Shown piece after piece: positions 12,425 to 62,943 of a stretch of 64,000 nucleotides of DNA (position 1 is the first letter of the stretch; the number at the start of each line of letters is the position of its first letter). The notes beneath the pieces are model-generated. The model was given only the letters and a program-made list of their open reading frames with translations. It was not told where the DNA came from and ran no database searches. Made by a program: the position numbers and the translations under genes. The stretch lies in assembly GCA_026005175.1 (NCBI GenBank), contig BPKO01000001.1:868001-932000 (forward strand), in the 5' to 3' direction. The stretch comes from Candidatus Tectimicrobiota bacterium (GTDB taxonomy: Bacteria; Tectomicrobia; Entotheonellia; Entotheonellales; Entotheonellaceae).

Positions 12425-14225
12425 ATGGAGCAGAGCCGGATTCGCAACTTCTGCATCATCGCCCACATCGACCACGGCAAGTCGACGCTTGCCGACCGCC
12501 TGCTGGAGCGCACCGGCACCCTGCCGCCGGAGCAGATGCAGGAGCAAGTGCTCGACAGCATGGACTTGGAGCGCGAGCGCGGCATCACCATCAAAGCCCA
12601 CGCCGTGCGCATGTCTTATCGGGCGCCCGACGGCCAGGATTACGTGCTTAACCTCATCGACACGCCAGGGCACGTGGACTTTGCCTACGAGGTGTCGCGC
12701 AGCCTGGCGGCTTGTGAGGGGGCGCTGCTGGTGGTCGACGCCACCCAGGGGGTGGAGGCACAGACGGTGAGCAACCTCCTGCTGGCGCTCGACAACAACC
12801 TGGCCATCGTGCCCATCCTCAACAAAATCGACATGGCCAGCGCCCAGGTGGCGGCCGTAGAGCGCCAGGTGGCCGAGCTGCTGGGCTGCCCGCCGCAGGA
12901 AATTCTGCACATCAGCGCCAAGCACGGCATCGGCATCGACGCCGTGCTGCAGGCCATCCTCACCCGCATCCCGCCGCCGGCCGGCGATGCCAGCAAGCCC
13001 TTGCGGGCGCTGATTTTTGATTCTCTCTACGACGCCTACCGCGGGGTGGTGTGCTTCGTGCGCCTCGTCGACGGCACCCTCAAGCCGGGGATGAAGGTTC
13101 GCTTTTACGCCACCGGCCGCGAGTACGAGGTGGAAGAAGTGGGGGTGCTGCAGCTGCGCCGCGTGCCGGTGGCGGCGCTACACGCCGGCGAGGTGGGCTA
13201 CGTCATTGCCGGGGTGCGCACCGTGGCCGACGCGCGCGTGGGGGATACCCTGGTGGAGGCCAAGGACCAGACTGTCCAGCCCCTGCCCGGCTACCGGCCG
13301 CTCAAGCCCATGGTCTTTAGCGGCCTCTACCCGGTCAACCCCGACGACTACGACGACCTGCGCCGCGCCCTCGAGCGCCTGCGCCTCAACGACGCTGCTT
13401 TTACATACGAGCCGGAGACCTCGGCGGCGCTGGGGTTTGGTTTTCGCTGCGGCTTCCTGGGGCTGCTGCACATGGAGGTCGTGCGGGAGCGCCTGGAGCG
13501 AGAATACCATCTTGAGCTGATCACCACCGTGCCCAGACGTGCGCTACGAGGTATGCAAGCGCGACGGCACGGTGGTGGAAGTCGAGACCCCGGCGGCGCT
13601 GCCGCCGCCGCAGGAAATTGCCGAGCTGCGCGAGCCCATTCTGGCGGCCCAGATCCTGGTGCCCAGCGCTTACCTGGGCGGCGTCATGCAGCTGCTGAGC
13701 GAGCGGCGCGGCACTTACGTGAACACCGAGTACCTCGACGCCGAGCGCGTCATTCTGTCCTATGAAGTGCCGCTGGCCGAAGTCATCACCGACTTTTACG
13801 ACCGGCTCAAGTCGGTGTCGCGCGGCTACGCCTCGTTTGACTACGAGTTCAAGGGCATGCGCCGCGCCGACCTGGTCAAGCTGGACATTTTGATCAACGG
13901 CGAGCCGGTCGATGCCCTCTCCACCATTTTGCACCGCGAGCGGGCCTACAGCTGGGGGCGGGAGCTCTGCGCCCGCCTCAAGGAGCTCATCCCGCGGCAG
14001 CTCTTCGAGGTGGTCATTCAGGCGGCCATTGGCAGCCGCGTCATTGCCCGCGAGGTGGTGCGGCCGCTGCGCAAGAACGTCACCGCCAAGTGCTACGGCG
14101 GCGATGTGACGCGCAAGCGCAAGCTGCTCGAAAAGCAAAAAGAGGGCAAAAAGCGCCTCAAGCAAGTCGGCCGCGTGGAGATTCCGCAGGAGGCCTTTCT
14201 CGCCGCCCTGCAGCGGGGAGGCTGA
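12425..14225 (+). CDS. lepA: Elongation factor 4 (LepA), frame broken once
   Basis: A translation GTPase that back-translocates stalled ribosomes. The first frame carries the G domain: [14 protein letters not shown] (G1), [12 protein letters not shown] (G2), DTPGHVDF (G3), NKIDM (G4), SAKHGIG (G5). The LepA signature [22 protein letters not shown] is also there. After LELITTVP the frame is lost: an extra A near 13535 breaks CCC-GAC-GTG-CGC. From there [10 protein letters not shown] continues to the end in the +1 frame, including the LepA-specific C-terminus [21 protein letters not shown]. Removing one base gives 599 residues, the usual LepA length, so a sequence error is more likely than a dead gene. 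GCGGAGGCGCCCC precedes the start; hemW follows four bases after the stop. Confidence 0.9.
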
Positions 14226-14229
14226 AGCC

Positions 14230-15395
14230 GTGGCCGCATTGGGCCTCTACGTGCACCTGCCTTTTTGCCGCCAACACTGCCCTTACTGTTCCTTTGCCGT
14301 GGTCACCGGCCACGAAGCGCTCTACGCCCCTTACGTTGACGCCGTGTGCCAGGAGATTCGCCGCTGGCGGCACCTGGCGGCGCGCGGCCCGCTGCAGACG
14401 GTCTTTTTGGGCGGCGGCACGCCCAGTCTGCTGGCGCCCGAGCTGATCGGGCGCCTTCTCGACACGGCGGCGGCCACCCTGGGGCTGGCGGCCACGGCCG
14501 AGATCACCCTGGAGGCCAACCCCCATCCTGCCGACGCTGCCCGCTTTGCCGCCTTTCGCGCCCTGGGCTGCAACCGCCTCAGCCTGGGAGTGCAGGCCTT
14601 CGTCGACGCCGACCTGCGCGCTTTGGGGCGCGACCACAGCGCCCGCGACGCCGAGGCGGCCTACGAGGCCGCGCGCCGGGCCGGCTTTGACAACGTCAAC
14701 CTCGACCTCATCTTTGCCATTCCGGGCGCCCCGCGCCACCACTGGCAGACCACCCTGGCCCGCGCCGTGGCTTTGCAGCCCGAGCACCTTTCCACGTACG
14801 GCCTGACCATCGAAGCAGGGACGCCGCTGGCGCGCCGCCTGCGCCGCGGCGAGCTGGCATGGCGGTGGCCGAAGACGACGACGCCTGGGCCTACACGGAG
14901 GCCATGGAAGTCCTCAGCGCCGCCGGCTACGAGCACTACGAAGTGTCCAACTTTGCCCGCCCCGGGTGGCGGTCGCGGCACAACTGGGGCTACTGGCACG
15001 GCGCGCCCTATCTGGGGGTGGGGCTGGGGGCGCATTCCTTCATCGACGGCGTGCGCTGGTGGAACGTGCGCAACCTGCGCAAGTACCTCCAGGCCATGGC
15101 CAGCGGGACCTCGCCCTGCGCCGGCCGCGAGGTGCTGACGGCGGCGCAGGCACGCGCCGAGCAGATCTGGCTGCGGCTGCGCACCTGCGAGGGGGTAAGG
15201 CTCAGCGCCTGGGAACGCGAGCGCCTGCAGCGGCAGCCGCGGTTTGGCCAGCTCATCGAGGCCGGCTTGCTTTGCCTCGAGGGGGACTGCCTGCGCCTGA
15301 CACGCGCCGGCATGCCCCTGGCCGACGCCCTCGGGGTGGAGGTGGTGCGCCTGCGGGAAGCGCCAGCGCCGCCGGCGGTGGCAGAGAGGAGGTAA
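14230..15395 (+). CDS. hemW: HemW-type radical SAM heme chaperone, frame broken once
   Basis: Related to coproporphyrinogen dehydrogenase; HemW binds heme and delivers it to proteins. The radical-SAM motif CRQHCPYC (C-x3-C-x2-C) is at residues 14-21. FLGGGTPSLL, TLEANPHP, GCNRLSLGVQAF and LDLIFAIPGAP follow. Near 14857 (GAGCTGGCATGGCG) one base is missing. The protein continues in the next frame with MAVAEDDDAWAYTEAMEVLSAAG..., YEVSNFARPG, and the HemW block HNWGYWHGAPYLGVGLGAHS. Repaired length is about 388 residues, normal for HemW. The GTG start has GGGGAGG 7 bases upstream and overlaps the lepA end region, so lepA-hemW is an operon, a common pairing in bacteria. Confidence 0.87.
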
Positions 15396-48553: not shown

Positions 48554-48570
48554 ATTCAAGACCTGACCCC
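48554..48570 (+). repeat. 17-bp repeat, copy 1 (left end of inverted pair)
   Basis: ATTCAAGACCTGACCCC, exact copy. It faces the copy at 49142-49158 across the small repeat-protein gene. Confidence 0.85.
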
Positions 48571-48614: not shown

Positions 48615-49136
48615 TCACCAGCCCCTGCAAAGGGCCCAGAGGGCATCTACCCAAAGCCCGGCCTTGCCTCCGATTGAGTCGATATAGGTGCCCGCCGGGC
48701 AAAGGGCATCCTGGGTGGAGCCCCCGCCGCCTCCCGCGTTGACCGTTTTCCACCGGTGGGTCGAGCTTTTCCATCGGGTACAACGAATCGACACAATCTT
48801 GTCGACGTAGAGGCCTCCCTTGCCCCGGAGCCCCGTGATCACATACCCGTCGGGACAATAGGCGCTCCTTTCCACCCTGCCAAATCCTGAGTCCAGCGTA
48901 TTCACCCCATTTACCGCACCCCCGTATCGTGCGCTCCTTGCCCGCAGATCGTTTGTCGGGGCACAGTAAAGCCCGACTTCGTCCACGTACTGGGCTCCCT
49001 CCACACGGATGCCCACCGCCGCCTCGGCACCAGAAGGGCATTTCTCCGTTTGCAGCTTGGCCCAGGAATTGGAATTGCCGATCACGCTGGTACGGATTGC
49101 CCCCTGACCCCCCTGGGGAAGGAAGATCAGGAGCAC
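48615..49136 (-). CDS. Three-repeat Cys/Gly protein, related to the 61.7-kb protein
   Basis: A 173-residue protein made of three copies of a motif of the form C-P/x-x-G-x5-G-x2-G-x3-GxYVD-x5-L/V-x2-C. They read CPSGAEAAVGIRVEGAQYVD, CPDGYVITGLRGKGGLYVD and CPAGTYIDSIGGKAGLWVD, each followed by a strand ending in Cys. The same motif forms the C-terminal half of the caspase-like protein near 62 kb. The pattern resembles repeats of VMO-I/jacalin-like beta-prism proteins, which is a guess. The GTG start directly follows the right-hand 17-bp repeat; no signal peptide is visible, so the 5' end may have been lost. The gene nearly fills the segment between two inverted 17-bp repeats. Confidence 0.62.
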   Translation of the reverse strand: MLLIFLPQGGQGAIRTSVIGNSNSWAKLQTEKCPSGAEAAVGIRVEGAQYVDEVGLYCAPTNDLRARSARYGGAVNGVNTLDSGFGRVERSAYCPDGYVITGLRGKGGLYVDKIVSIRCTRWKSSTHRWKTVNAGGGGGSTQDALCPAGTYIDSIGGKAGLWVDALWALCRGW

Positions 49137-49141
49137 CTTAG

Positions 49142-49158
49142 GGGGTCAGGTCTTGAAT
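49142..49158 (-). repeat. 17-bp repeat, copy 2 (right end of inverted pair)
   Basis: Exact reverse complement of copy 1. The longer match to copy 3 is CTGA-C/T-AATTCAAGACCTGACCCC. Confidence 0.85.
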
Positions 49159-49222
49159 TGTCAGCCGGTTCGCCATCTTGGCCAGGCCGCAGCCGTCGTG
49201 GCAAAGCGAAGGTGAACTGATA

Positions 49223-49239
49223 ATTCAAGACCTGACCCC
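49223..49239 (+). repeat. 17-bp repeat, copy 3
   Basis: Exact copy in the same orientation as copy 1, 64 bases beyond copy 2 and inverted to it. Confidence 0.85.
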
Positions 49240-49331
49240 TTCCGCTTTCAAAAATGCAATTCGTTTGCGCAAGATTTCGCTGCCGCTGCCGGGCAGAGGG
49301 CCCATTTGGCAGCACTGGCAGGGCTGGCCGA

Positions 49332-49347
49332 TGGCACGGATCTTGTA
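49332..49347 (+). promoter_or_regulatory. Candidate sigma-54 promoter of the autotransporter operon
   Basis: TGGCACGGATCTTGTA: the -24 part is perfect (TGGCACG), and the -12 part is TTGTA (GT for GC), with the required 10 bases between. It lies 40 bases before the ATG. Confidence 0.55.
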
Positions 49348-49386
49348 TGCGGGAAGCGGAGTGGCCACAGGCAAAGGGAGGACAGC

Positions 49387-50804
49387 ATGCAAGGCAAGAG
49401 ACGCAGGCAGCGACGAAAATGGGTTTGGGGGGCAGTACTGGTGCTGAGCTGGGGACTGGCGCAGCCAGGCCACGGCCAGGAGCCGCCGCCGAATTTTCGC
49501 TCCCTTCCTGGCCTCAACCCCGTGCAGCAGGCGGTGGCCGAGGGAACCGACGCCTTTTGTGACTCGCCGGCGGGAGCGGGCACCGACTTGAATCGCTCCC
49601 TGTGTGGCGGTGGCTTCCGCGGTGGGGTGCAGAGCGGGACGACGGACGCCGAAACGGCAAAAGTGGGCCTGCAGCAGCTGGGCTACGAAGAGGTGGCGGC
49701 ACAGGGCACAACGGCGATCGAAGTTTCGCAAACGCAGTTCGCCCACATTGGGGCGCGGCTTGCCGCCCTACGCGGCGGGGGGCAACGACCCTGAGCCTGC
49801 GCCGCTTCGCCTTGCAACGGCACGAGGAAGGCCTTGCCTGGACACGCCTCGCCAGTCTAGGCCAGCCGATGGCCCTGGCGAGTACGACGCCAGCACCGCC
49901 GCTGGTGCGGCGCCTGGGCGTATTCCTTACCGGCACGCTCGCTGCGGGGCGACAAGGCGGCGACGTCGCGCGAGGCAGGGTTCGACTTCGGGGCCATGGG
50001 TATCACTGGGGGCGTCGATTACCGCCTCACCCGCCTGGCTGGTGATCGGCTTGGCCGCGGGGTATACGACCACTGACGTCGACCTCGACGCCACTGCTGG
50101 CAACCTGGATGTCGAGGGCTGGAGCGTGTCGGGCCCCTACGGCACGTATCAGACTCCCGCAGGATTGTATGTGGACGGCATCGTTACCCTCGGCTGGAAC
50201 GACTACGAGATGACGCGGCGCATCGACTACCGCTTTACCGACCGCACCGGGGCGTCGCGGCGGGTCAACCAAACGGCACTGGGAGAAACCGCGGGCCGCT
50301 GGTACGCCGCCAGCGTGGGCCTTGGCTACGACTGGCAGCGGCGTGCCTGGACCCTCGGGCCGCTGCTGCGGGTAAGCTACACGCGGGTCGACATCGACGG
50401 CTTCACCGAGGCCGTGGTCTTCAACCCCGGCAATACCGAGGTCGGTCAGCACCTTACCATCGACGGCCAGGACCTCGAGTCTCTGACCACGGCAGTGGGC
50501 GTGCAGATGGCCTATGCCCTCAGTACCCCCTTGGGGGTGCTGCTGCCCCAGGCGCAGCTCGAGTGGGAGCACGAATTCGAAAACGACAGCCGCACCCTGG
50601 TCGCTCGCTATGTGGGTGACCCTGGGGCGACCCCGCTGCGACTGCGCACCGACGCCCCGGACCGCGATTTCTTCAACCTCGGCGTCGGTCTTACCGCCAC
50701 GCTGCCCCTACGGCATTTCGGCCTTTGTGCGCTACCAGACGGTCCTTGACTTGGCGGCGGTCACGGTGCACAGCGTCGCCCTGGGCGTGCGCCTCGAGCT
50801 GTAA
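49387..50804 (+). CDS. Autotransporter outer-membrane beta-barrel protein, frame broken several times
   Basis: A short autotransporter-type outer membrane protein. It opens with a basic, hydrophobic signal (RRQRRKWVWGAVLVLSWGLAQPGHG), then LPGLNPVQQAVAEGTDAFC, EEVAAQGTTAIEVSQTQFAHIGARLAALRGG, the family's pre-barrel block. After a six-G run near 49787 the frame shifts: TTLSLRRFALQRHEEGLAWTRLA..., LGVFLTGTLAAG. Shifts near 49935 and 50036 lead through FDFGAMGITGGVDYRLTR to VIGLAAGYTTTDVDL and the barrel strands. Near 50707 (CCCC) it shifts to YGISAFVRYQTVLDLAAVTVHSVALGVRLEL, a normal aromatic-ended barrel terminus. Total about 470 codons. AAAGGGAGGACAGC precedes the ATG. Consensus indels are the simplest reading. 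The caspase lipoprotein gene follows closely. Confidence 0.75.
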
Positions 50805-50869
50805 GGAAGGAGCCGTGTGGGGAAAAGGGTGTCAGCAAAGGGCGTCTTTTCTGGGGTGGGCTGGTCACA

Positions 50870-52861
50870 ATGGGCCTCCTGGCCGGGGGATGTGCCCCAC
50901 CGGTACCACCCTCCCAACCCCCTACTGCCCCTTCGGCCACGCGGGCCGAAGATTTCCTGGTGGTCGATTGCTTGCTGCCCGCCCAGGTGCGCCAGCTGGG
51001 GGCGGCACCTGACTTACCTGGCGCCCCGTCGTCCCATTCGCACCTCTGCCCACGACTGCGCCTTGCGGGGGTGGGGAATACGTCGCTTACGATCGCAGCA
51101 AACTACGCCACCGCGCTCAAGGTTTGGCTGCCCCTCGCCAAGCAGGGCGACCCCGAAGCTCAGACCAATGTGGGCGAGATTTACGAAAAAGGTCTGGGAG
51201 TCCCTCCTGACTACGCCCAGGCAGCGGCGTGGTACCGCAAGGCAGCCGAGCAGGGGTTTGCGCGAGCCCAAATCAACCTTGGCCACCTGTACGAAAAGGG
51301 GCTGGGGGTGCCCAAAGACCCAGTACAGGCGCTGCATTGGTATCGCCAGGCTGCCGGACTGAGCCAGGGCATTGCCCTTGACATAGGCACGCTCAAGGCT
51401 GCCGCCCAGGAGGAGCTTGCCACGCTTCGAGAGGAGGTGGCGCGCTGGCAGCGCGAAGCCGAGACGCTGCGTGCGCAGCTCAAGGCGGCGCAGGAGCAGC
51501 TCGAGCGCCTGCAGCAGCAGCTCCGCGAGCGGCAAAGCCAAGTGGAAGCCGAGCGCCAGGCCCTGGCGCAGGCCCGGCGCGAGCTGGAGGCGCACCAGCA
51601 GCAGGACGCCACAACTCGGCAGCAGCTGGCCGCGCAGCTCGCCCGGCGCGAAGCCGAGCTCGAACGCCAGCGCGCAGAAGTCGCCCGCCTGCAGCAAGAG
51701 ATTGCCCGCCTGCAGGCCGATACCGTTCGCTACCGGGCGCAGCTGACGCAAGTGGAACGCCGCCAGCAGGAGGTGGCGGTTGCGCCACCCACCATCACCG
51801 TCATCGACCCGCCGCTGGCGGCAACGCGCGGTCTAGTGCGGGTGTCGGACGTCACCACGGCAGGCCAGCCCCAGCGGCTGGTGGTAGGACGGGTGGAGGC
51901 CCCAGCGGGGCTTCTCTCGCTGACCGTCAACGGCCATGAAACCCAGCCTGAAGCCGGAGGGGTGTTTCGCGTCACCGTCCCCGTGGCGGCAGGACGTACC
52001 CCAGTGCGCATCGTCGCCGTCGATCGGCAAGGCAAGCACGCCAGCCTGGAGTTCGTCCTGACCACGGCGGCTGCCGCCCAAGAGAGCACCACACGGCCCT
52101 TGCTGCCGGCGGCAGATTTTGGCACCTACCACGCCCTGATTATCGGCAACAGCCACTACGCCCACTGGCCAGACCTGCAAACCCCGCATCGCGACGCGCG
52201 GGAAGTCGACCGGTTGCTGCGTGGCAAGTACGGCTTTCGTACCCGGGTGTTGCTCGACGCCACGCGCTACGACATCCTGCAGGCGCTCAACGAGCTGCGC
52301 CGGCAACTGACAGAGCGGGATAATCTGCTCATTTACTATGCCGGCCATGGCTACCTGGACCCCCAAATCGACCGCGGCTACTGGATCCCGGTCGATGCCC
52401 ATCTCGACAGCAACGTGCAGTGGATCTCCACCCTGGCCATTACGGACATGGTCGCCGCCATGTCGGCCAAACACGTCCTGGTGGTGGCCGACTCCTGTTA
52501 TGCCGGGGCTCTGACGCGCTCGGCACTGGTACGCCTGGAAAGCGGGATGTCGGCGGAAGCGCGGCAACACTGGCTGCGTCTCATGGCTGCCAAGCGCTCG
52601 CGGACGGTCCTGACGGCCGGGGACTTGCAGCCGGTGCTGGACAGCGGTGGCGGCGGCCATTCGGTGTTTGCCAGGGCCTTTCTCGCCGTGCTGGCCGACA
52701 ACCTCGAGGTTCTGGAAGGGCAGCGCCTGCACCAGGAAATCGCGGCCCGCGTGACCTACGCGGCGGCGGCGGCTCTGGTGGAGCAGGTTCCCCAGTACGC
52801 CCCCCTTCGCTACGCGGGTCACGAGGCAGGAGATTTTCTCTTCGTGCCCCAAGTGAATTAG
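50870..52861 (+). CDS. Lipoprotein with Sel1 repeats, coiled coil and caspase domain
   Basis: A large envelope protein. The lipobox is LLAGGC near the N-terminus; the leader continues upstream in frame without a start (FWGGLVT), so the true 5' end (about 50816) is probably frame-broken. After DCLLPAQVRQLG two shifts (about 51000 and 51066) hide TYLAPRRPIRTSAHDCALRG and GEYVAYDRS. A third, near 51107, precedes NYATALKVWLPLAKQGDPEAQT. Two Sel1 repeats (about 80-165, YEKGLGVPPDYAQAAAWYRKAAEQG) lead into a long Glu/Gln/Arg coiled coil (about 175-305), a beta domain (315-400), and a C14 caspase domain (420-650). The caspase domain carries YYAGHGY (His493) and VVADSCYAG (Cys543). Both catalytic residues are present. 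It should act outside the inner membrane. Confidence 0.83.
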   Translation: MGLLAGGCAPPVPPSQPPTAPSATRAEDFLVVDCLLPAQVRQLGAAPDLPGAPSSHSHLCPRLRLAGVGNTSLTIAANYATALKVWLPLAKQGDPEAQTNVGEIYEKGLGVPPDYAQAAAWYRKAAEQGFARAQINLGHLYEKGLGVPKDPVQALHWYRQAAGLSQGIALDIGTLKAAAQEELATLREEVARWQREAETLRAQLKAAQEQLERLQQQLRERQSQVEAERQALAQARRELEAHQQQDATTRQQLAAQLARREAELERQRAEVARLQQEIARLQADTVRYRAQLTQVERRQQEVAVAPPTITVIDPPLAATRGLVRVSDVTTAGQPQRLVVGRVEAPAGLLSLTVNGHETQPEAGGVFRVTVPVAAGRTPVRIVAVDRQGKHASLEFVLTTAAAAQESTTRPLLPAADFGTYHALIIGNSHYAHWPDLQTPHRDAREVDRLLRGKYGFRTRVLLDATRYDILQALNELRRQLTERDNLLIYYAGHGYLDPQIDRGYWIPVDAHLDSNVQWISTLAITDMVAAMSAKHVLVVADSCYAGALTRSALVRLESGMSAEARQHWLRLMAAKRSRTVLTAGDLQPVLDSGGGGHSVFARAFLAVLADNLEVLEGQRLHQEIAARVTYAAAAALVEQVPQYAPLRYAGHEAGDFLFVPQVN

Positions 52862-52873
52862 AGGAGAACGACC

Positions 52874-53636
52874 ATGCGCGGGAGTTGGCTTTTGGTCCTC
52901 GGCTTGACGGTCCTGGTGGCAGGGCAAGAACCGGCGGCCAGCGCCGAGACGCCGGCGTTTGCTGGCGTCTTCACAGGCACCATCGCCGGAACCGCCGCCA
53001 CGCTGGTGCTGGAACGCCACGGAGACGCCCTCAAGGGCCAGATCGATGCCAGTGGCTACCTCTACCTGCTATCGGGCACCGTCGGCGGCCAGCAGGCTCA
53101 GGGCACGCTGAGCGATCCGCAGGCCGGCGGCGCCGTGGCGTTTCGTGCCACCCTAGACGGCGACCGCCTTCACCTCACTCTGCACGACGCGGCTTCAGGG
53201 CAGCAGGTGGCCATCACGCTAACGCGCGGCCCCGCCACGGCCACTCCGCCAGAGGCTCCGGCAGCCCCGGCCCCCTACGACAGGCGAGCGCGATCCCGCT
53301 CTGGTCGGAAGGTGGGCCAAGCAGGAGGCAATGAGCGGCGGTGGCGCCTCCCTGGCGATGCAGACCTTTCTCACCGTGAGCGCCGACGGCACCTTCTCTT
53401 ACGGCAGTGCCCGTGCCGTTGGCGGCGGCGAGACCCCCTGGGGCACCTGGGGTGTCGACACCGGTACCGGCGGCGACACGATGAGCGGGCGCTGGCGGAC
53501 GGCCGACCGTATCTTGTACCTCCTCCATCCGACGACGGGCCAGTGGGTCCCCGCGGCTCGCTACTACGTGGAGGGAAACCAGCTGCTGCTGTACTTGCCC
53601 GACGGATCGCGGGAACTGTGGTACCGGCAGCCCTAG
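52874..53636 (+). CDS. Small exported protein, frame broken once
   Basis: A secreted protein of about 253 residues. A signal peptide (MRGSWLLVLGLTVLVAGQEPAASA) leads a small beta domain: FTGTIAGTAATLVLERHGDALKGQIDASGYLYLLSG..., AVAFRATLDGDRLHLTLHDA. Near 53285 a base is gained; ERDPALVGRWAKQEAMSGGGASLAMQTFLTVSADGTFSYG continues in the next frame. It ends GNQLLLYLPDGSRELWYRQP. The second half has repeated beta strands (lipocalin-like order, GTWGVDTG..., MSGRWRTAD). Function unknown. It starts 12 bases after the caspase lipoprotein gene, with GAGGAGAACGACC upstream. Confidence 0.65.
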
Positions 53637-53698
53637 ACCCTCGTGCTTCCTCGCTACAAAGGAAGGGCGGTCGTCTCTATGGCAAGAGGAGAGGTCTC

Positions 53699-54334
53699 AT
53701 GCTGCTTTGGCTCGTTGGCGTGTTTGTGCTCGTTTCCTGGCCGGGCGGGCAGGCAGGGGACGCTCAGGCGCAACCCTCCCCGGCAGAGGTCTTCGAGCTG
53801 CACCTGGGGGGACGCGTCTACGAAGTGTCCCTGGATCGGCCCTTTACGCTGGTGACGCCCGCCGGAGAGCGGGTCGAGCTGGTGTTGCGCCGCCGAGAGG
53901 TGCTCCGCTATGAGACGCCGGAACTTGCCTTTGACTATCCCGCCGCGCTGCGGCTGCACCGCGAGATCGAAAGCGGCATTACCACCCTGACCCTGGAAGG
54001 CGTGGCCTCGCCCTTTGTGCTCATCCAGCTCTATCCGGGCTCGCCCGCAGCCGCCGACATCCTGGCCAACCTGGTGGCAGCCTTCCTCGACGAGTACGCC
54101 GGGCGCCAGGCGCAGTTTTTATCCGGGAACAACACCCCGGTGTCCCGCCTCATGGGAGGGCATTCCCGCGATGGACGGCAGCTGCGATTCCGGCTCGCGG
54201 GCCAAGAGATGGTGACCGAGATCTATGCTTTTGCCAAGCCCAATGCCGTGGTGGCCGTGGTCCTCCAGCACGACACGGCCGAGGCGTCCCTTGCCGAGCG
54301 GTATTTTGCGATCGTTACACGGCGCTTGCAGTAG
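53699..54334 (+). CDS. Exported hypothetical protein
   Basis: A 211-residue secreted protein: signal MLLWLVGVFVLVSWPGGQAGDAQA, then an alpha/beta domain (FELHLGGRVYEVSLDRPFTLVTPAGERVELVLRRREVLRYETPELAFDYP). FVLIQLYPGSPAAADILANLVAAFLDEYAG and EMVTEIYAFAKPNAVVAVVLQHD are further clear strands and helices. I do not recognise it. AGAGGAGAGGTCTC precedes the ATG. It is the last gene of the unit that begins with the autotransporter and ends against the convergent DUF4384 gene. Confidence 0.65.
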   Translation: MLLWLVGVFVLVSWPGGQAGDAQAQPSPAEVFELHLGGRVYEVSLDRPFTLVTPAGERVELVLRRREVLRYETPELAFDYPAALRLHREIESGITTLTLEGVASPFVLIQLYPGSPAAADILANLVAAFLDEYAGRQAQFLSGNNTPVSRLMGGHSRDGRQLRFRLAGQEMVTEIYAFAKPNAVVAVVLQHDTAEASLAERYFAIVTRRLQ

Positions 54335-54351
54335 CACCTGCCGGATTGCCC

Positions 54352-55304
54352 TCACTCGTGACGGAACCACCGCGTGATGACGAGCTCCGCGCCGCTGGTT
54401 TCAAAGGCCGTCGCCGTCACGGGCTGTCCTGCACCGGTGGCAGTCGGAATGGAGACCGGAGCTGCGCTGTGCACGCGGCGGATGCCGCGGGTGAGCACAA
54501 TGGCGGGCTCGCGCACCGGACGGTACCCCGGCCCGCGCATTTCGCGCTTGCCTCTTGCCAGGGTGGCGATGACGTGCTCCAGCTCCGGACGCCGCGTTGA
54601 CGAAGCGATAAAGTACACGTGTTCGATGCCGCGGTACTCGTCGAGCCCATACCAGACGGTGTCGTCCTTGGGGATGAGGTACTGGTGACCTGGCATCACG
54701 GGGTTGGCTTCGGCATCGTCGGCATGCGGGAAAGCGACTTCGACAAAGCCCGAGCCATCGATGGCAACGACATAAACGTAGCAGGCACAGTTGGCTCTGA
54801 AAAAGAATTTTAGCTTGTCGCCAGCCTGGGGATCGCCACGCCCGTCGCGCAACACGGCGCCATCTTCGATGGCCTCGACGCCCACCCTGCCGTCGGCCAG
54901 GACTACCTGCTTGTAGAGGCCGACTTCCAGGACCAGCGGGGGGCCTGCGCTGCCACCGCAGGAGGAGACGGCGCAGGCGGCGCCTCGTAGGGGACGGGAG
55001 CGCTGGCTGCCACCTCCTGGACGGGCTGCGGGGCTTCGGGAACGGCAGGCGGCGCTATGCTTGTCGCCAGAGCGGCGCTGCCGCTATAAGAGGCAGAAAT
55101 GGTCTGCATGAACTGGGCCAAGGTGTTGACGTACGGGCTCTGGAAGTTTGCGGCCGCCGCCGAGAGCAGATCCGCGCCGGTTTTGATCATGGCTGGCAAC
55201 AGGGGAGCTGCCGCACAGGAGGCAAGCAGCAGGCAGGCGGGAACCCCAAGCCACCCCCAGTGCCGCGACCGCCTGCTTCGGAAGCGCGAGGCAAGAAACC
55301 CCAT
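54352..55304 (-). CDS. DUF4384 lipoprotein, frame broken once
   Basis: An envelope lipoprotein of about 317 residues. The lipobox LLLASC (SRHWGWLGVPACLLLASCAAAPLL) is followed by a short helix and a Pro/Ala linker (PPAVPEAPQPVQEVAASAPVP...). A six-G/C run near 54943 shifts the frame. PLVLEVGLYKQVVLADGRVGVEAIEDGAVL then continues into the DUF4384 domain: GDKLKFFFRANCACYVYVVAIDGSGFVEVAFP, MPGHQYLIPKDDTVWYGLDEYRGIEHVYFIAS. DUF4384 often accompanies caspase and kinase-linked surface proteins. AAGGAGAAGGTCCT precedes the ATG, and a perfect sigma-54 site lies 65 bases upstream. Confidence 0.8.
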
Positions 55305-55368
55305 AGGACCTTCTCCTTGTCAAGGCACCGTTCAGGACCCCCCGTGCCGGGGAGTCCTTGCCATGAGG

Positions 55369-55384
55369 AGCAAGGACTGTGCCA
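55369..55384 (-). promoter_or_regulatory. Sigma-54 promoter of the DUF4384 lipoprotein gene
   Basis: TGGCACAGTCCTTGCT on the minus strand fits TGGCAC-N5-TTGCW with GG and GC 10 bases apart, 65 bases before the ATG. Confidence 0.7.
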
Positions 55385-55434
55385 AGCCCGGGTGTCGCGC
55401 GTGCCGGGCCATGGTGCGCACTGCAGTGGCCGGC

Positions 55435-55461
55435 TTTCACTGCTGAAATTCACCGCTGAAA
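55435..55461. promoter_or_regulatory. Tandem candidate enhancer (UAS) sites
   Basis: TTTCACTGCTGAAA (55435-55448) and ATTCACCGCTGAAA (55448-55461) are near-palindromes 50-80 bases upstream of the 55369-55384 promoter. TTTCACTCGCGAAA near 61.5 kb is similar, so they may bind the cluster's sigma-54 activator. Confidence 0.35.
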
Positions 55462-55899
55462 TTGTTTCCGTGCTGTGTCCTGCGGAACTGGGCGTCCGTC
55501 AACCACCGGCAGCATGTCGGTCACCGTCTGCTCGACCCGCAAAAACAGGCGGTAGTTGGCTGGAGAGGGGAGGGTGGCCGGGAGCTGGAGGCGGAGCCTG
55601 ACCACGGTGCTGCGCTGCCCGCTGGTGAAGCGGGTCAGGGAAACTTCGGGGGTGTCGACGGCCGGCGTGGCCCCAGGCGCCACCAGCATCAGGGATACGG
55701 CTTCGGCGCTGGGGTGACCGGTGTTGTGGAGACTCATGTAAAGAAGCACGGTCCCGGCGCCAAGCGGGGTGAGCTGCACCTGCCCAAAGCGCCAGTTGGA
55801 CTTCGGGAAAGCCAGCGCCAAGCTGCCAAAGACCACGATCGCCATCATCAGGAAACACGCTTCCCGGCGCAGCGGGACGCGTTGCCATCGAGGGGCCAT
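55450..55899 (-). CDS. Membrane-anchored hypothetical protein
   Basis: A 149-residue protein with one N-terminal membrane segment (ACFLMMAIVVFGSLALAF). It has a beta-rich exported part: FGQVQLTPLGAGTVLLYMSLHNTG, SLMLVAPGATPAVDTPEVSLTRF, then TVVRLRLQLPATLPSPANYRLFLRVEQT. I do not recognise it. GGGAGACAGCCC precedes the ATG, and a perfect sigma-54 promoter lies 38 bases before it. An in-frame ATG 14 codons upstream would overlap that promoter, so the shorter start is preferred. Confidence 0.62.
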   Translation of the reverse strand: MAPRWQRVPLRREACFLMMAIVVFGSLALAFPKSNWRFGQVQLTPLGAGTVLLYMSLHNTGHPSAEAVSLMLVAPGATPAVDTPEVSLTRFTSGQRSTVVRLRLQLPATLPSPANYRLFLRVEQTVTDMLPVVDGRPVPQDTARKQFQR

Positions 55900-55936
55900 G
55901 GGCTGTCTCCCGCGTGCTCTAGAACCCCTTGGGTGA

Positions 55937-55952
55937 AGCAACTTCCGTGCCA
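55937..55952 (-). promoter_or_regulatory. Sigma-54 promoter of the membrane-anchored protein gene
   Basis: TGGCACGGAAGTTGCT on the minus strand matches the full -24/-12 consensus, GG-N10-GC, 38 bases before the ATG. Confidence 0.72.
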
Positions 55953-56116
55953 GCCACAGAGTCTTTCCCCGCTGTGCAGATGCTGCGCTTCGGCAGGCAA
56001 AGCGCCTCTGCAGATGGTTGTCCTGCGGCAGCAGGCACCTGCCACGCCGGAGGCTTGTCGTTTCATCTGCTGTCGTATAAGATGAGGGAACAACAGGCAG
56101 TCTAGGGACGGCCGGT

Positions 56117-59100
56117 ATGATCTACACTTTTGACGAGTACGAGCTGGATACCGACCGCTACGAGTTACGCCGTCAAGGCCAGCTCGTCCCACTGCGCCCC
56201 CAGGCTTTCAATGTTCTTCTTTATCTCATCCGTCAACGACACCGGCTGGTTGCCAAGCAAGAGCTGGTAGAGCGGCTGTGGGGCGGGCGTTGCATCAGCG
56301 ACGCCGCCCTTGAGCGCTGCATTGCCTCGATTCGTAAGGGCCCTGGGCGACAGTGGCCGCACGCAGCGCCGGTTGCAAACCCAATACCGTCGGGGCTACC
56401 GCTTTATTGCTTCGGTGGTAGAGCGGGATCCCGTAGCGACGACGGAGACCCCCCTGCTGTCGCCAGCGACCCTCGCCACCGGTGCGAGCGCCGGTGGCGC
56501 CGCCGGCGCCCGCAGCGCGTCCGCTGCACGTAGAGCGCAAGCCGGTAACCGTTCTCTCTTGCCGTGTGACCAACCTCACCAGTCAGCCTTGGCACGACGA
56601 TCCTGTTGCCCGCAGCGCGGTGCTTTCGGCCTTCTGGTCCACTGCCTTGCGCGTTGTCGAGCAGTACGGGGGCACCGTGGACACGATGGGCGATGACAGC
56701 TTCGTGGCGCTTTTCGGCGTCCCCGTGGCCTATGAAGATCACGCCTGGCGTGCATTACTCGTCGCCCATCGCCTGCCGCAGGCCTTGCAGCAGGCCGCCG
56801 AAACTCGCCTGACGGCTCTGTCTCTGGGTATGGGCATTCACAGTGGAACCGTCATCGCCTGGTACGTTGGCAACGACGTGCGCGTTAGTCCGGCGGAGGC
56901 GGAAAACGCAGTGGCGCTGGCGTGCCGGCTCCAGCAGGTTGCTGCGCCGCGGTGCCTCCTTCTCAGTGAGGCCACGCGCCGCTTGCTGCGAGACGCGATG
57001 CCCCTCCAGAAGCAGGGAATGCTGCAAGTGGCTGGACATGACGAACCGCTGGCCGTGTACACGATTTTGACGGAGCCGACGGGGGCAGAAGCGCCATCGC
57101 TGGGACCTCGTCCCCGGTGTTTCGTGGGACGGGCTCGCGAGCTGGCACTCCTGCACGAGCGCTTCTGCCAGGCGCAGGCAGGTCAAGGCCAGGTGGTAGC
57201 CTTGGTCGGGGAAGCCGGGATAGGCAAGAGCTGCCTGCTTGCCGAGTTTCACCGCCGGGTGTCGGCAGAGTGTTGTACGTTCCTTGAAGGCTACGGCCTC
57301 TCGTACGGCATAACGCAACCTTACGGGCCGGTGCGGGCGCTGCTCTGGCAGGCGTGTGGGCTGTCGCCGGCAGAGGGGGCAGACACGCTGATTGCCAAGC
57401 TACGGCGACGCTTGCGGAGCCTGGCCCTGGATACCGAGCAAGCCGTGGCGGTATGCTTACGCCTGCTTGATCTCAGCCCGGCGGCCGACGGCCTTGAGAC
57501 GCTGACACCGGCAGCGTTGCAGGCGCGCTTTCTGGAGGTGCTGGGGCAGCTGTGGGTGCGGCTAAGCGAGGAGCGGCCGCTGGTGGTGGTGCTGGAAAAC
57601 CTCCACTGGATTGACCAGGCTTCACAAGCGTGGCTGGCCGCGCTGGTGGAGCGGGTTGCCGGCGCCGCCATCCTGCTGCTGCTCACTTACCGTCCTGGGT
57701 ATCATGCCCCCTGGCTGACCAAATCCTACGTCACCCAGATCGCGCTGCGGCCTCTGGGGTCGGCAGAGAGCCTGGCCCTTGTCCATGCCATCGTGCCCCC
57801 GGTGCGTCTGCCGGCGTCCGTAGCCCAGCAGATCTTGCAGCGGGCCGAAGGCCACCCGTTTTTTCTCGAAGAGCTGGCCCGTGCGGCAGCCGAGCAGGGG
57901 CTGGAGTCCGGTACGTTCACCGTGCCGGCGACGATCCAGGATGTGATCATGGCGCGGCTCGATCAGCTTCCGCCGGCGGCAAAGCGCCTGCTGCAGACCG
58001 CCTCGGTGCTGGGCCGTCGCTTCTCGCAGGGCCTGCTCGAAGCCCTCTGGGAAGAGCCAGAAGGGGTGGGGCCGCTGCTGGGCGAATTGCAACGGCACGA
58101 AATGCTCTACGAACAGCGCGAGGCTGGAGAGTCGCTTCATGTCTTCAAGCATGCCCTCATCCAGGAGGTCTCTTACCACAGCTTGCCGCTGGCGCGGCGG
58201 CAGGCCCTGCACGCCGCTGCCGGTGCGGCGCTGGAGAGGCGCCACGCTGGCCGCCTCGAGGCCGTGTATGCCCAGCTCGCTTACCACTACGCCCGCACCG
58301 AAGTGGCAGCCAAAGCCGTCGAGTATCTGCACGTGGTAGCCAAGAAGGCCCTTCGTAGCCACGCCCATCACGAGGCCCTTGCCGCCCTGCGTGAGGCTGC
58401 CGAGCACGCGGCCCGGCTGTCGCCACCCGAGCGCGACCACTGCCTGGTGACGCTGGCCCTGGCAGAAGCTTTTTCGCTTTCGGTTTTGGGGCGCTTCCGC
58501 GAGGTGCAAGCATGCTTGCAACGGCACCACGAACGCATCGAGCGACTGCAGGAGGCTGCCTTGACTGGCCCGTATTACTTCCGCCTTGGCCTGACAGCGC
58601 TTTATCTTGGCGAGGTGGCCCAGGTGGTGCCCTACGCGCAGCGCGCCCTTGCGGCCGCACGACGCGTTCAGGATCGCGTCACCCTGGGGCAGGCATACTA
58701 CTGTCTTGCCTTGCACTATTACCTGAGCGGGGACTTTGCCCAGGGCATGGCCTATGGCAGGCAGGCCATCGCCGCGCTGCAAGAGACGGGTGAGCAGCAC
58801 TGGCTGGGCCTTGCCTACTGGGTCCTGGGGTACAGCGCCGCCTTGCTGGGGGAAGTAAAGGCGGCGCTTGACGCGCAAGCCCAGGCTCATGCCATCGGGG
58901 TGGCTACGGAGGATCGTCGCCTGCAGAGCTTTGCCGACGGGGTACGGGGCTGGGTGCTGGCACTGTGTGGCGCCACGCAAGAAAGCCTTGCCGCCTGCCG
59001 GCGAGGCTACGCCCACGCCGCCGACCCGGTGAGCAAGGGCCCTGGCGGCCGGCTTCCTGGGTTGTGCCTACCTGGAAGCTGGGGAAGCCGCGTCGGCGCT

Positions 59101-59560
59101 GCCGTTGCTGCACGAGGCGGTGACCCATTTCACCAGCCAGCAGTTTGCCCAGGGCCAAGCTCGCTTCATGCCTTTTCTTGCCCAGGCCCATCTCCAGGTG
59201 GGGGCGGTGGCCGAAGCGCGCGTGTGGGCACGCCGCGCCATGGCCGTGTCGCGCAGCGTGGCATACTGGCACGGCATCGGTTGGGCAGCCCGGGTGCTTG
59301 GCCGCCTCGAGCGACTGCAGGGGCGATTTGCCGAGGCTGCCCACCACTTTCAGGAAGCCCTGGAGATTTTTACGGCGCGGCAGGCGCGCTATGAGATGGC
59401 CTGCGTGCGACTTGAATTAGCCGCTCTGGCGCAAGGGGACGAGGTGGCGGTGCGGGACCACTTGCGGGCGGCAGCCGTCCTCCTGCGTGCTATGGGTATG
59501 CCCTCCCCACGGAGACGCCTGCGGCAGCTGGCGCAGAGCTACGGCGTGTCCGTCTTATGA
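56117..59560 (+). CDS. Winged-helix/cyclase-like/AAA/TPR regulator, frame broken three times
   Basis: A regulator of about 1147 residues. The N-terminal OmpR/ToxR-type winged helix (YTFDEYELDTDRYELRRQGQLVPLRPQAFNVLLYLI, LVERLWGG) breaks at AAGGGCCC near 56337. It goes on ALGDSGRTQRRLQTQYRRGYRFIASV. After a low-complexity linker and a second break (about 56522) comes a cyclase-like domain (ERKPVTVLSCRVTNL..., YGGTVDTMGDDSFVALFG). Its first metal Asp is replaced in LSCRV, so it is probably inactive. An AAA/STAND ATPase follows (Walker A LVGEAGIGKSCLL; Walker B VVVLENLHWID) with a TPR region. A last break at AAGGGCCC near 59038 leads to the C-terminal repeats. It is divergent from the 55.9-kb gene. 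Confidence 0.8.
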
Positions 59561-59575
59561 GGCGGACCCTGCCAG

Positions 59576-59593
59576 AAAAATTCAGCAATTTTT
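59576..59593. terminator. A/T hairpin after the regulator gene
   Basis: AAAAATT-CAGC-AATTTTT, a perfect 7-bp stem, starts 16 bases after the stop and is the most A/T-rich spot nearby. It may terminate the upstream transcript. Confidence 0.4.
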
Positions 59594-59674
59594 CAGGAAA
59601 AAGTCAGGCAACCCCTGCCGCTGCCGCCTATATTTGGCCATGTGTGGTCATGGCCCAGGGCAGAGGCAGGTTCT

Positions 59675-61479
<1,805 letters not shown>

Positions 61480-61485
61480 CAGCTC

Positions 61486-61528
61486 TTTCACTCGCGAAAG
61501 CTTACAGAACTGCATTGCGCCAGTGAAA
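61486..61528. promoter_or_regulatory. Candidate enhancer site upstream of the 61.7-kb gene
   Basis: TTTCACTCGCGAAA (61486-61499) plus the half-site AGTGAAA (61522-61528), 45-85 bases before the -24 box. It is similar to the tandem sites near 55.4 kb. Confidence 0.35.
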
Positions 61529-61570
61529 TCACCCTGCCTGTAACGCAAGTGTGATAAGCGTTTCTGCTCC

Positions 61571-61586
61571 TGGCATACCTTTTGCT
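61571..61586 (+). promoter_or_regulatory. Sigma-54 promoter of the caspase/repeat protein gene
   Basis: TGGCATACCTTTTGCT: GG-N10-GC with TTGCT at -12 and one change (CAT for CAC) at -24, 92 bases before the ATG. Confidence 0.65.
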
Positions 61587-61677: not shown

Positions 61678-62943
61678 ATGTCCCAACCCACAACCCGAGT
61701 TCCCCGTCGCCGGCACGGTGGGCTTGCCCCGCTGCTGGCTCTGGTGATTCTGCTTGTTCTGGGCAGCGGCGTTGCACGGGGTCTGGGAACCGCCGAGCGC
61801 GACTTGCTCATCCTGGTGGCAGATTTAAGCAAAGGCTACGATGCCCCAGCCCAGCAGGCGTTTTACCAGTTGGTCGGTTTTGCCGCCGAAGCTGCGGCTG
61901 CCACCACCCTCAAACCCCTTTACCGCGAGATTCACGTGCTCAAAGGGGGGCAAGCGACGCTGGCGATGCTGCGCAGTCGCCTGCACACCGTCACCGCCAA
62001 CGCGGCAGTCAAGGCCGTGGACGTCATCTTCGTCACACATGGCCTAGATTCCAGGCTGTACTTTACCGACAGGGCGCACACGAGCGCCGAGGTGCGGGAT
62101 CAGATCCGGACCCTTCCCGAGGCGCAACGCGCCAAGTTGCGCATGCTGTTTTCTACGGCGTGCTATGGCTCGACCCACATCAACGACTGGCTGCAAGCGG
62201 GCTTTAAAGTCGTCTCGGGCTCCAAGCGCATCTATGCCGACAGCGCCCTGAGTTATCCGGCCTTCCTCGGCGCCTGGGCCCTAGGCCAATCCTTTGCCCA
62301 GGCCGCTGCGGCAGCCAACGCGGCCGATCCGCTGCGGGTGCAGGACAAAGCAGCGATGGAAGTGCTGCGCCAGTGGAAGCATCCTTCTTGGCAGGACGTG
62401 GACAGTACCCGGGTGGTGGGGGGCAACGGCGCCCTCACGATAAACAGTGCAGTGGTACCGTCCAGTACGCCCACCGTAGCCCGCACCGGGCTGGTTGGGG
62501 GCAACGGCGGCAGAGACTTTGAGCGCTCCTGTGCTGCCGGTGAGGTCCTGGTAGGCCTCAAGGGCCGCAGCGGCTGGTGGCTGGATCAGGTCCAAGTGCA
62601 GTGTGTGCGCATCGATGGCCAGGGGCGCTGGAGCAGTGGCGTGGTCACCCGGGGCAGCGCCGGGGGCAACGGGGGCAATCCCTTTACCCGCACCTGCAGT
62701 TCGGGCTACGCGGTGGTGGGTTTTGACGGCAAGGCCGGCAGCTATGTCGATCGTCTCGAGCTGCGCTGCCGCAAGCTGACCGGCGCCTCTAGCACCAGTG
62801 GCTCTGAAGTGGCGCTTGCTGCCGTTGGCGGCAACGGCGGCAGAGACTTTAGCGCCAAGCGCTGCCCGTCGTCGCGCCCGGCTGTGGGGATCTACGGCCG
62901 CTCCGGCAGCTACGTCGACGCGTTTGGCCTGGTGTGCCGCTGA
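61678..62943 (+). CDS. Secreted caspase-like protein with three C-terminal Cys/Gly repeats
   Basis: A 421-residue exported protein. An N-terminal leader (LAPLLALVILLVLGSGVARG) starts it. Residues 40-235 look like a clan-CD cysteine-peptidase fold: LLILVADLSKGYDAPAQQ, VDVIFVTHGLDSRLYF (His121) and LRMLFSTACYGSTHIND (Cys162). The His-Cys spacing of about 41 is as in caspase-like domains. Three repeats at about 273-309, 328-364 and 383-420 follow: VGGNGGRDFERSC-x-AGEVLVGLKGRSG, then CSSGYAVVGFDGKAGSYVD and CPSSRPAVGIYGRSGSYVD. These match the small gene near 48.6-49.1 kb. TGTGAGGAGATATGCC precedes the ATG. Peptidase activity is inferred. Confidence 0.78.
   Translation: MSQPTTRVPRRRHGGLAPLLALVILLVLGSGVARGLGTAERDLLILVADLSKGYDAPAQQAFYQLVGFAAEAAAATTLKPLYREIHVLKGGQATLAMLRSRLHTVTANAAVKAVDVIFVTHGLDSRLYFTDRAHTSAEVRDQIRTLPEAQRAKLRMLFSTACYGSTHINDWLQAGFKVVSGSKRIYADSALSYPAFLGAWALGQSFAQAAAAANAADPLRVQDKAAMEVLRQWKHPSWQDVDSTRVVGGNGALTINSAVVPSSTPTVARTGLVGGNGGRDFERSCAAGEVLVGLKGRSGWWLDQVQVQCVRIDGQGRWSSGVVTRGSAGGNGGNPFTRTCSSGYAVVGFDGKAGSYVDRLELRCRKLTGASSTSGSEVALAAVGGNGGRDFSAKRCPSSRPAVGIYGRSGSYVDAFGLVCR

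What the first reader, a model, noticed from the sequence alone, without database searches (positions are those of the whole stretch)
49332..61586. Four sigma-54 promoters in one surface-protein cluster that also encodes a sigma-54 activator
TGGCACGGATCTTGTA, TGGCACAGTCCTTGCT, TGGCACGGAAGTTGCT and TGGCATACCTTTTGCT each lie 38-92 bases before a start codon, in the right orientation. They serve the autotransporter operon, the DUF4384 lipoprotein, the membrane-anchored protein and the caspase/repeat protein. I saw no other such sites before genes in the first 47 kb. The sigma-54 activator lies between these units. This looks like a self-contained regulon.
Basis: partly seen in the sequence, partly recalled or inferred. 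Interest (0 to 1): 0.88.

Follow-up and report, generated by a model that had tools for sequence, protein, structure and literature searches.

The report
Local sigma-54 regulon with private enhancers
A bacterial cluster of surface-protein genes carries real sigma-54 promoters, three of which share an enhancer-like sequence found almost nowhere else in the genome, and the likely activator, which looks like an unusual membrane-anchored sensor, is encoded inside the cluster.

Summary
All four sites are present, correctly oriented, intergenic and 37-91 b before ATG codons. Three (55369-, 55937-, 61571+) are strict TGGCAYN5TTGCW; the fourth (49332+) has TTGTA and is weaker. The strict motif occurs 37 times in the 3.99 Mb genome against 1 for the reversed control, so sigma-54 sites are real but genome-wide, and the genome has about ten activators.

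A dyad sets this cluster apart. TTTCA-N4-TGAAA, in tandem copies 13 b apart, starts 56-86 b upstream of three sites (49332, 55369, 61571). It is rare in the genome (23 places with up to one mismatch, 4 of them here), and a blind dyad search picks it. Other sigma-54 promoters are enriched instead for TCTCA-N4-TGAGA, including PEP-CTERM genes. The 55937 site has neither dyad.

The cluster's activator (GAFTGA, HTH) appears joined to a transmembrane, extracytoplasmic sensor, unlike the genome's nine other activators examined. The join crosses a frameshift that is probably a sequencing error. RpoN is missing from this 77%-complete assembly but present in two family members.

Verdict: a local regulon of at least three promoters is well supported; control by the local activator is likely but unproven.

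The parts
49246..49272 (+). Candidate enhancer of the 49332 promoter: tandem dyads 49246-49259 (TTTCAAAAATGCAA) and 49259-49272 (weaker)
49332..49347 (+). Sigma-54-like promoter TGGCACGGATCTTGTA (weak: TTGTA), 39 b before ATG 49387
49387..50749 (+). Autotransporter with signal peptide; frame broken near 49.8 kb
   Evidence: PF03797, 2.8e-44
50870..52861 (+). Sel1-repeat, caspase-domain lipoprotein
   Evidence: PF08238, PF00656
52874..54334 (+). Two or three further proteins of the same orientation with no family match; frames broken
54352..55304 (-). DUF4384 lipoprotein; frame broken near 54.9 kb
   Evidence: PF14326, 1e-14
55369..55384 (-). Strict sigma-54 promoter TGGCACAGTCCTTGCT, 64 b before ATG 55304
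55435..55461 (-). Candidate enhancer of the 55369 promoter: tandem dyads TTTCAGCGGTGAAT and TTTCAGCAGTGAAA, 13 b apart
55450..55899 (-). Small N-terminally membrane-anchored protein, no family match
55937..55952 (-). Strict sigma-54 promoter TGGCACGGAAGTTGCT, 37 b before ATG 55899; no TTTCA or TCTCA dyad upstream
56117..59560 (+). Winged-helix / nucleotidyl-cyclase-like / AAA_16 / TPR regulator; frame broken in two places
   Evidence: PF00486, PF00211, PF13191, PF13424
59675..60265 (+). Apparent sensor half of the activator: TM helix, extracytoplasmic PAS/sCache-like domain, TM helix, start of a HAMP-like linker
60247..61479 (+). Sigma-54 activator half: AAA+ with GAFTGA, lid, helix-turn-helix
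   Evidence: PF00158, 1.3e-70
61486..61528 (+). Candidate enhancer of the 61571 promoter: dyads 61486-61499, 61502-61515 (weak), 61515-61528
61571..61586 (+). Strict sigma-54 promoter TGGCATACCTTTTGCT, 91 b before ATG 61678
61678..62943 (+). Secreted protein with GGNGG/jacalin-like repeats; no Pfam caspase match
   Evidence: PF01419, 7e-10

Best explanation
This is a local sigma-54 regulon. A one-component sigma-54 activator (59675-61479), probably anchored in the inner membrane and sensing an extracytoplasmic signal, binds tandem TTTCA-N4-TGAAA dyads roughly 90-105 b upstream of the expected transcription starts. It then drives RNA polymerase-sigma54 at three promoters: the autotransporter / Sel1-caspase operon, the DUF4384 lipoprotein, and the jacalin-repeat secreted protein. 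Shown here: the promoters and their genome-wide enrichment, the shared near-private dyads at consistent spacing, and an activator with GAFTGA and HTH inside the cluster. Inferred: that this activator binds these dyads, that sensor and AAA+ are one polypeptide, the signalling direction and the signal. The 55937 promoter is not assigned; it may use the 55369 enhancer from about 500 b downstream, or another activator.
For: Strict motif 37 against 1 reversed control in the genome. The four sites are top intergenic hits in the window. TTTCA-N4-TGAAA with up to one mismatch: 23 places in 3.99 Mb, four of them in the cluster; among 38 sigma-54 sites tested it lies within 250 b upstream of only 49332, 55369, 61571 and one other, against 0.06 expected. 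The dyads are tandem, 13 b apart, at matching distances. A blind search over 5-b half-sites and gaps 0-12 picks this dyad for the cluster, score 7.7 against at most 5.5 in 400 random sets, and picks a different one, TCTCA-N4-TGAGA, for the other sites. The activator lies between the units and has GAFTGA, AAA+ and HTH. It is unlike the nine other activators of the genome examined, which lack an N-terminal TM pair.
Against: RpoN is not found in this assembly, though it is 77% complete and two family members have RpoN. 55937 has no dyad and 49332 a poor -12 element. The dyad was first noticed by eye before the blind test. The activator and several target genes have broken frames, probably sequencing errors (lepA in the same window is broken too), but decay is not excluded. 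No relative with the same cluster and enhancers was found, so conservation of the sites is untested.
Confidence: 0.62

Rival explanations
1. The sites are real sigma-54 promoters of a local or wider 'cell exterior' programme, but the dyads are read by another activator of the genome, and the activator in the cluster serves other targets.
For: About ten activators and 37 strict sites in the genome. A TTTCA-type dyad also lies upstream of a sigma-54 site on another contig (L021). No direct link between activator and dyad.
Against: The dyad is concentrated in this cluster, and activators of this kind often sit beside their targets (established knowledge).
Confidence: 0.25
2. The cluster belongs to the known PEP-CTERM / PrsK-PrsR sigma-54 regulon.
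For: A PrsR above its curated cut-off is encoded in the genome, and a PEP-CTERM gene with a sigma-54 site lies about 6 kb beyond the cluster (window coordinate 68170).
Against: No PEP-CTERM gene was called in the window. PEP-CTERM promoters carry TCTCA-type dyads, the cluster TTTCA-type. The local activator scores below the PrsR cut-off (292.7 against 502.6).
Confidence: 0.06
3. The four sites are chance matches.
For: With one mismatch allowed the window total is at chance level; 49332 is such a one-mismatch site.
Against: Strict motif 37 against 1 control; all four are intergenic top hits; three have dyads at consistent distances.
Confidence: 0.03
4. The cluster is decaying: broken frames mean the activator and several targets are pseudogenes, and the promoters are relics.
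For: Broken frames in the activator, autotransporter, DUF4384 gene and the 56117-59560 regulator.
Against: lepA in the same window is broken the same way and the genome is scored 77% complete, as expected of indel errors in the assembly.
Confidence: 0.1

Closest known systems
PEP-CTERM / PrsK-PrsR sigma-54 regulon (Haft et al. 2006, PMC1569441)
   Same: Sigma-54 promoters of exported surface proteins, each with an activator motif, sometimes repeated, about 63 b upstream and a start codon about 71 b downstream.
   Different: No PEP-CTERM targets, a different dyad, and an activator that is not PrsR. The PrsR regulon itself is present elsewhere in this genome.
Local regulons of one-component enhancer-binding proteins, as reconstructed in Desulfovibrio (PMC4641369) and Clostridiales (PMC6615313)
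   Same: An activator gene near operons with sigma-54 promoters and multiple upstream inverted repeats.
   Different: In Clostridiales most sensory domains of these activators lack transmembrane regions; here the activator appears to carry two TM helices and an extracytoplasmic sensor.
Sel1-caspase lipoprotein / autotransporter neighbourhoods in other phyla
   Same: A full-length Sel1-caspase homolog beside an autotransporter in a Gammaproteobacteria MAG (L095), an Eisenbacteria MAG (L096, DUF4384 also adjacent) and Nitrospira (L097).
   Different: No near-consensus sigma-54 site and no TTTCA dyad in those three loci.

Membership tests
sigma-54 promoter | GG at -24 and GC at -12 with fixed spacing | tested here: met
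   Met for 55369, 55937 and 61571; not for 49332 (TTGTA)
sigma-54 promoter | Enriched over control and upstream of genes | tested here: met
   37 against 1 in the genome; all four sites intergenic
sigma-54 promoter | Organism has RpoN | tested here: inconclusive
   Absent from the 77%-complete assembly; present in G002, G003, G004
sigma-54 promoter | Transcription start at the predicted position | not testable with these tools
   Needs RNA data
enhancer-binding protein (NtrC/NifA type) | Sigma54_activat AAA+ domain with GAFTGA | tested here: met
   PF00158 236.8 bits; GAFTGA in the translation
enhancer-binding protein (NtrC/NifA type) | C-terminal Fis-type HTH | tested here: inconclusive
   HTH-like C-terminus by eye; only weak generic HTH matches
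enhancer-binding protein (NtrC/NifA type) | Upstream activating dyads at its targets | tested here: met
   Three of four promoters; that this protein binds them was not tested
enhancer-binding protein, membrane-anchored | TM sensor and AAA+ in one open frame | tested here: inconclusive
   Two overlapping frames; HAMP-like linker halves line up across the break by eye, but Pfam finds no HAMP
PEP-CTERM / PrsR regulon | Targets carry PEP-CTERM; activator is TIGR02915 | tested here: not met
   No PEP-CTERM gene called in the window; local activator 292.7 bits against a cut-off of 502.6

The most novel reading that the evidence does not exclude
A sigma-54 activator that is itself a transmembrane receptor: an extracytoplasmic sensor joined through a HAMP-like linker to the AAA+ domain, acting from the membrane on its own private tandem enhancers to switch on a surface autotransporter/caspase/lipoprotein set without a kinase or response regulator.
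Probability: 0.4. Interest if true: 0.65.

Novelty: new variant of a known kind. Interest (0 to 1): 0.5.

Why it matters
Upstream dyads alone sort the sigma-54 promoters of this little-known lineage into classes, so activator-target wiring can be predicted without culture. If the membrane anchoring is real, it is a very short route from an envelope signal to sigma-54 transcription. The targets include a Sel1-caspase lipoprotein and an autotransporter that recur side by side in distant phyla; I found no paper describing that pairing in one search.

Tried and rejected
An ungapped shared-motif search of the four upstream regions (10-14 b) gave nothing above random regions; the dyad search did. 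A fifth neighbouring site (window coordinate 68170, outside the window) was rejected as a member: it precedes a PEP-CTERM gene with a broken frame and has a TCTCA-type dyad. The strict match at 66105 lies inside a gene. A search for relatives of the sensor half found none. No convincing DUF4384 ortholog in the family. RpoN by family and by a relative's protein: none in this assembly. The structure of the 61678-62943 protein failed (mean pLDDT 34.7) and is not used.

Full report
Observation. All four sites exist as described, 39, 64, 37 and 91 b before ATG codons. Only three are strict sigma-54 sites; 49332 has TTGTA. In a weighted scan they are four of the five best hits in the window and all are intergenic, while 160 kb of background has one comparable intergenic hit. 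No strict site lies in the first 55 kb. With one mismatch the plain pattern is at chance level.

Genome context. The strict pattern occurs 37 times in the 3.99 Mb genome against 1 for the reversed pattern. About 29 of the 37 lie upstream of gene starts, by my count: PEP-CTERM proteins, pilin, porin-like protein, Hsp20, universal stress protein, transport and others, named from the translations. Two relatives, G001 and G004, show similar enrichment (36 against 3, 36 against 1). The genome has ten clear sigma-54 activator domains, one of them partial, plus one marginal match. RpoN is not in this 77%-complete assembly but is in family members G002 and G003. So sigma-54 control is a genome-wide habit, and the sites alone do not make the cluster self-contained.

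Enhancers. Reading the upstream sequences printed, I noticed a perfect TTTCA-N4-TGAAA dyad upstream of the 55369 site, then tested it. With up to one mismatch it occurs at 23 places in the genome, four of them in this cluster. Copies lie in tandem, 13 b apart, starting at -86/-73, -77/-64 and -69/-56 (plus -85) relative to the promoters at 49332, 55369 and 61571; some second copies are weak. A tandem pattern built from them finds these three places and four others, near the number its control gives. A blind search over 5-b half-sites and gaps 0-12 picks the TTTCA dyad as best for the four regions (score 7.7 against a maximum of 5.5 in 400 random sets). The same search on the other strict sites picks TCTCA-N4-TGAGA, found within 250 b upstream of 9 of 38 sites with about none expected, including PEP-CTERM genes. 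A PrsR above its curated cut-off is encoded beside one of those genes, in line with the published PEP-CTERM regulon (PMC1569441). Thus at least two promoter classes can be told apart by the second base of the half-site. That PrsR reads the TCTCA dyad is inference. The 55937 site has neither dyad; L021 elsewhere has one TTTCA-type copy.

Activator. ORFs 59675-60265 and 60247-61479 read as one protein across a frame change: TM helix, sensor of roughly 115 residues, TM helix, a HAMP-like linker whose two halves lie in the two frames at the usual distance (read by eye; Pfam finds no HAMP), AAA+ with GAFTGA, and an HTH-like end. The sensor model (mean pLDDT 69, single sequence) resembles extracytoplasmic sensors such as the periplasmic domain of a LapD ortholog, CitA and WalK, with modest scores. 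None of the nine other activators of this genome that I examined has an N-terminal TM pair, and among the relatives' activators sampled at most one (L060) has a hydrophobic stretch near its N-terminus. The frame change is probably a sequencing indel, because lepA in the same window is broken in the same way and the genome scores only 77% complete. This is unproven.

Targets. The 49332 unit encodes an autotransporter and a Sel1-caspase lipoprotein; 55369 a DUF4384 lipoprotein; 61571 a secreted protein with jacalin-like repeats and no Pfam caspase match. Full-length Sel1-caspase relatives sit next to autotransporters in a Gammaproteobacteria MAG, an Eisenbacteria MAG (with DUF4384 also adjacent) and Nitrospira, with no near-consensus sigma-54 site in those three loci. 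The gene set is therefore a recurring surface neighbourhood, and its sigma-54 control looks lineage-specific.

Conclusion. A local sigma-54 regulon of at least three promoters is well supported by sequence. The local activator as its driver is the most likely reading (0.62), and membrane-anchored sensing is plausible (0.4). It is a new variant of a known kind.

Noticed in passing
G000 sigma-54 sites L001, L010, L015, L018, L025, L027, L036, L039, L040: These share a TCTCA-N4-TGAGA dyad within 250 b upstream; several precede PEP-CTERM genes, and a PrsR lies beside L039. It looks like a PrsR regulon outside the window.
   Followed up: partly
upstream regions of other strict sigma-54 sites of G000: A possible third dyad class, GACAA-N1-TTGTC, is upstream of 4 of the other strict sites with none in 223 kb of background. 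By eye it may include L023 (phosphoribosyltransferase) and L028 (universal stress protein).
   Followed up: no
L096 2997-8876: Eisenbacteria MAG with a lipase/ricin-lectin gene, DUF4384, Sel1-caspase and autotransporter genes in a row on one strand.
   Followed up: partly
window 49142-49239: An 18-b inverted repeat, GGGGTCAGGTCTTGAATT, with arms 62 b apart directly upstream of the 49246 enhancer, and a partial copy at 48557: possibly a small REP/MITE-like element.
   Followed up: no
window 48615-49136 (-): A protein with repeats similar by eye to those of the 61678-62943 protein, with a weak VOMI match, so similar repeat proteins flank the cluster; it is divergent from the 49332 promoter.
   Followed up: no
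window 12425-14300: lepA has a broken frame, evidence of indel errors in this assembly.
   Followed up: yes
G000 C2:81000-85000 (L019, L073): A strict sigma-54 site precedes a run of three small heat-shock (Hsp20-like) genes next to a sigma-54 activator gene.
   Followed up: no
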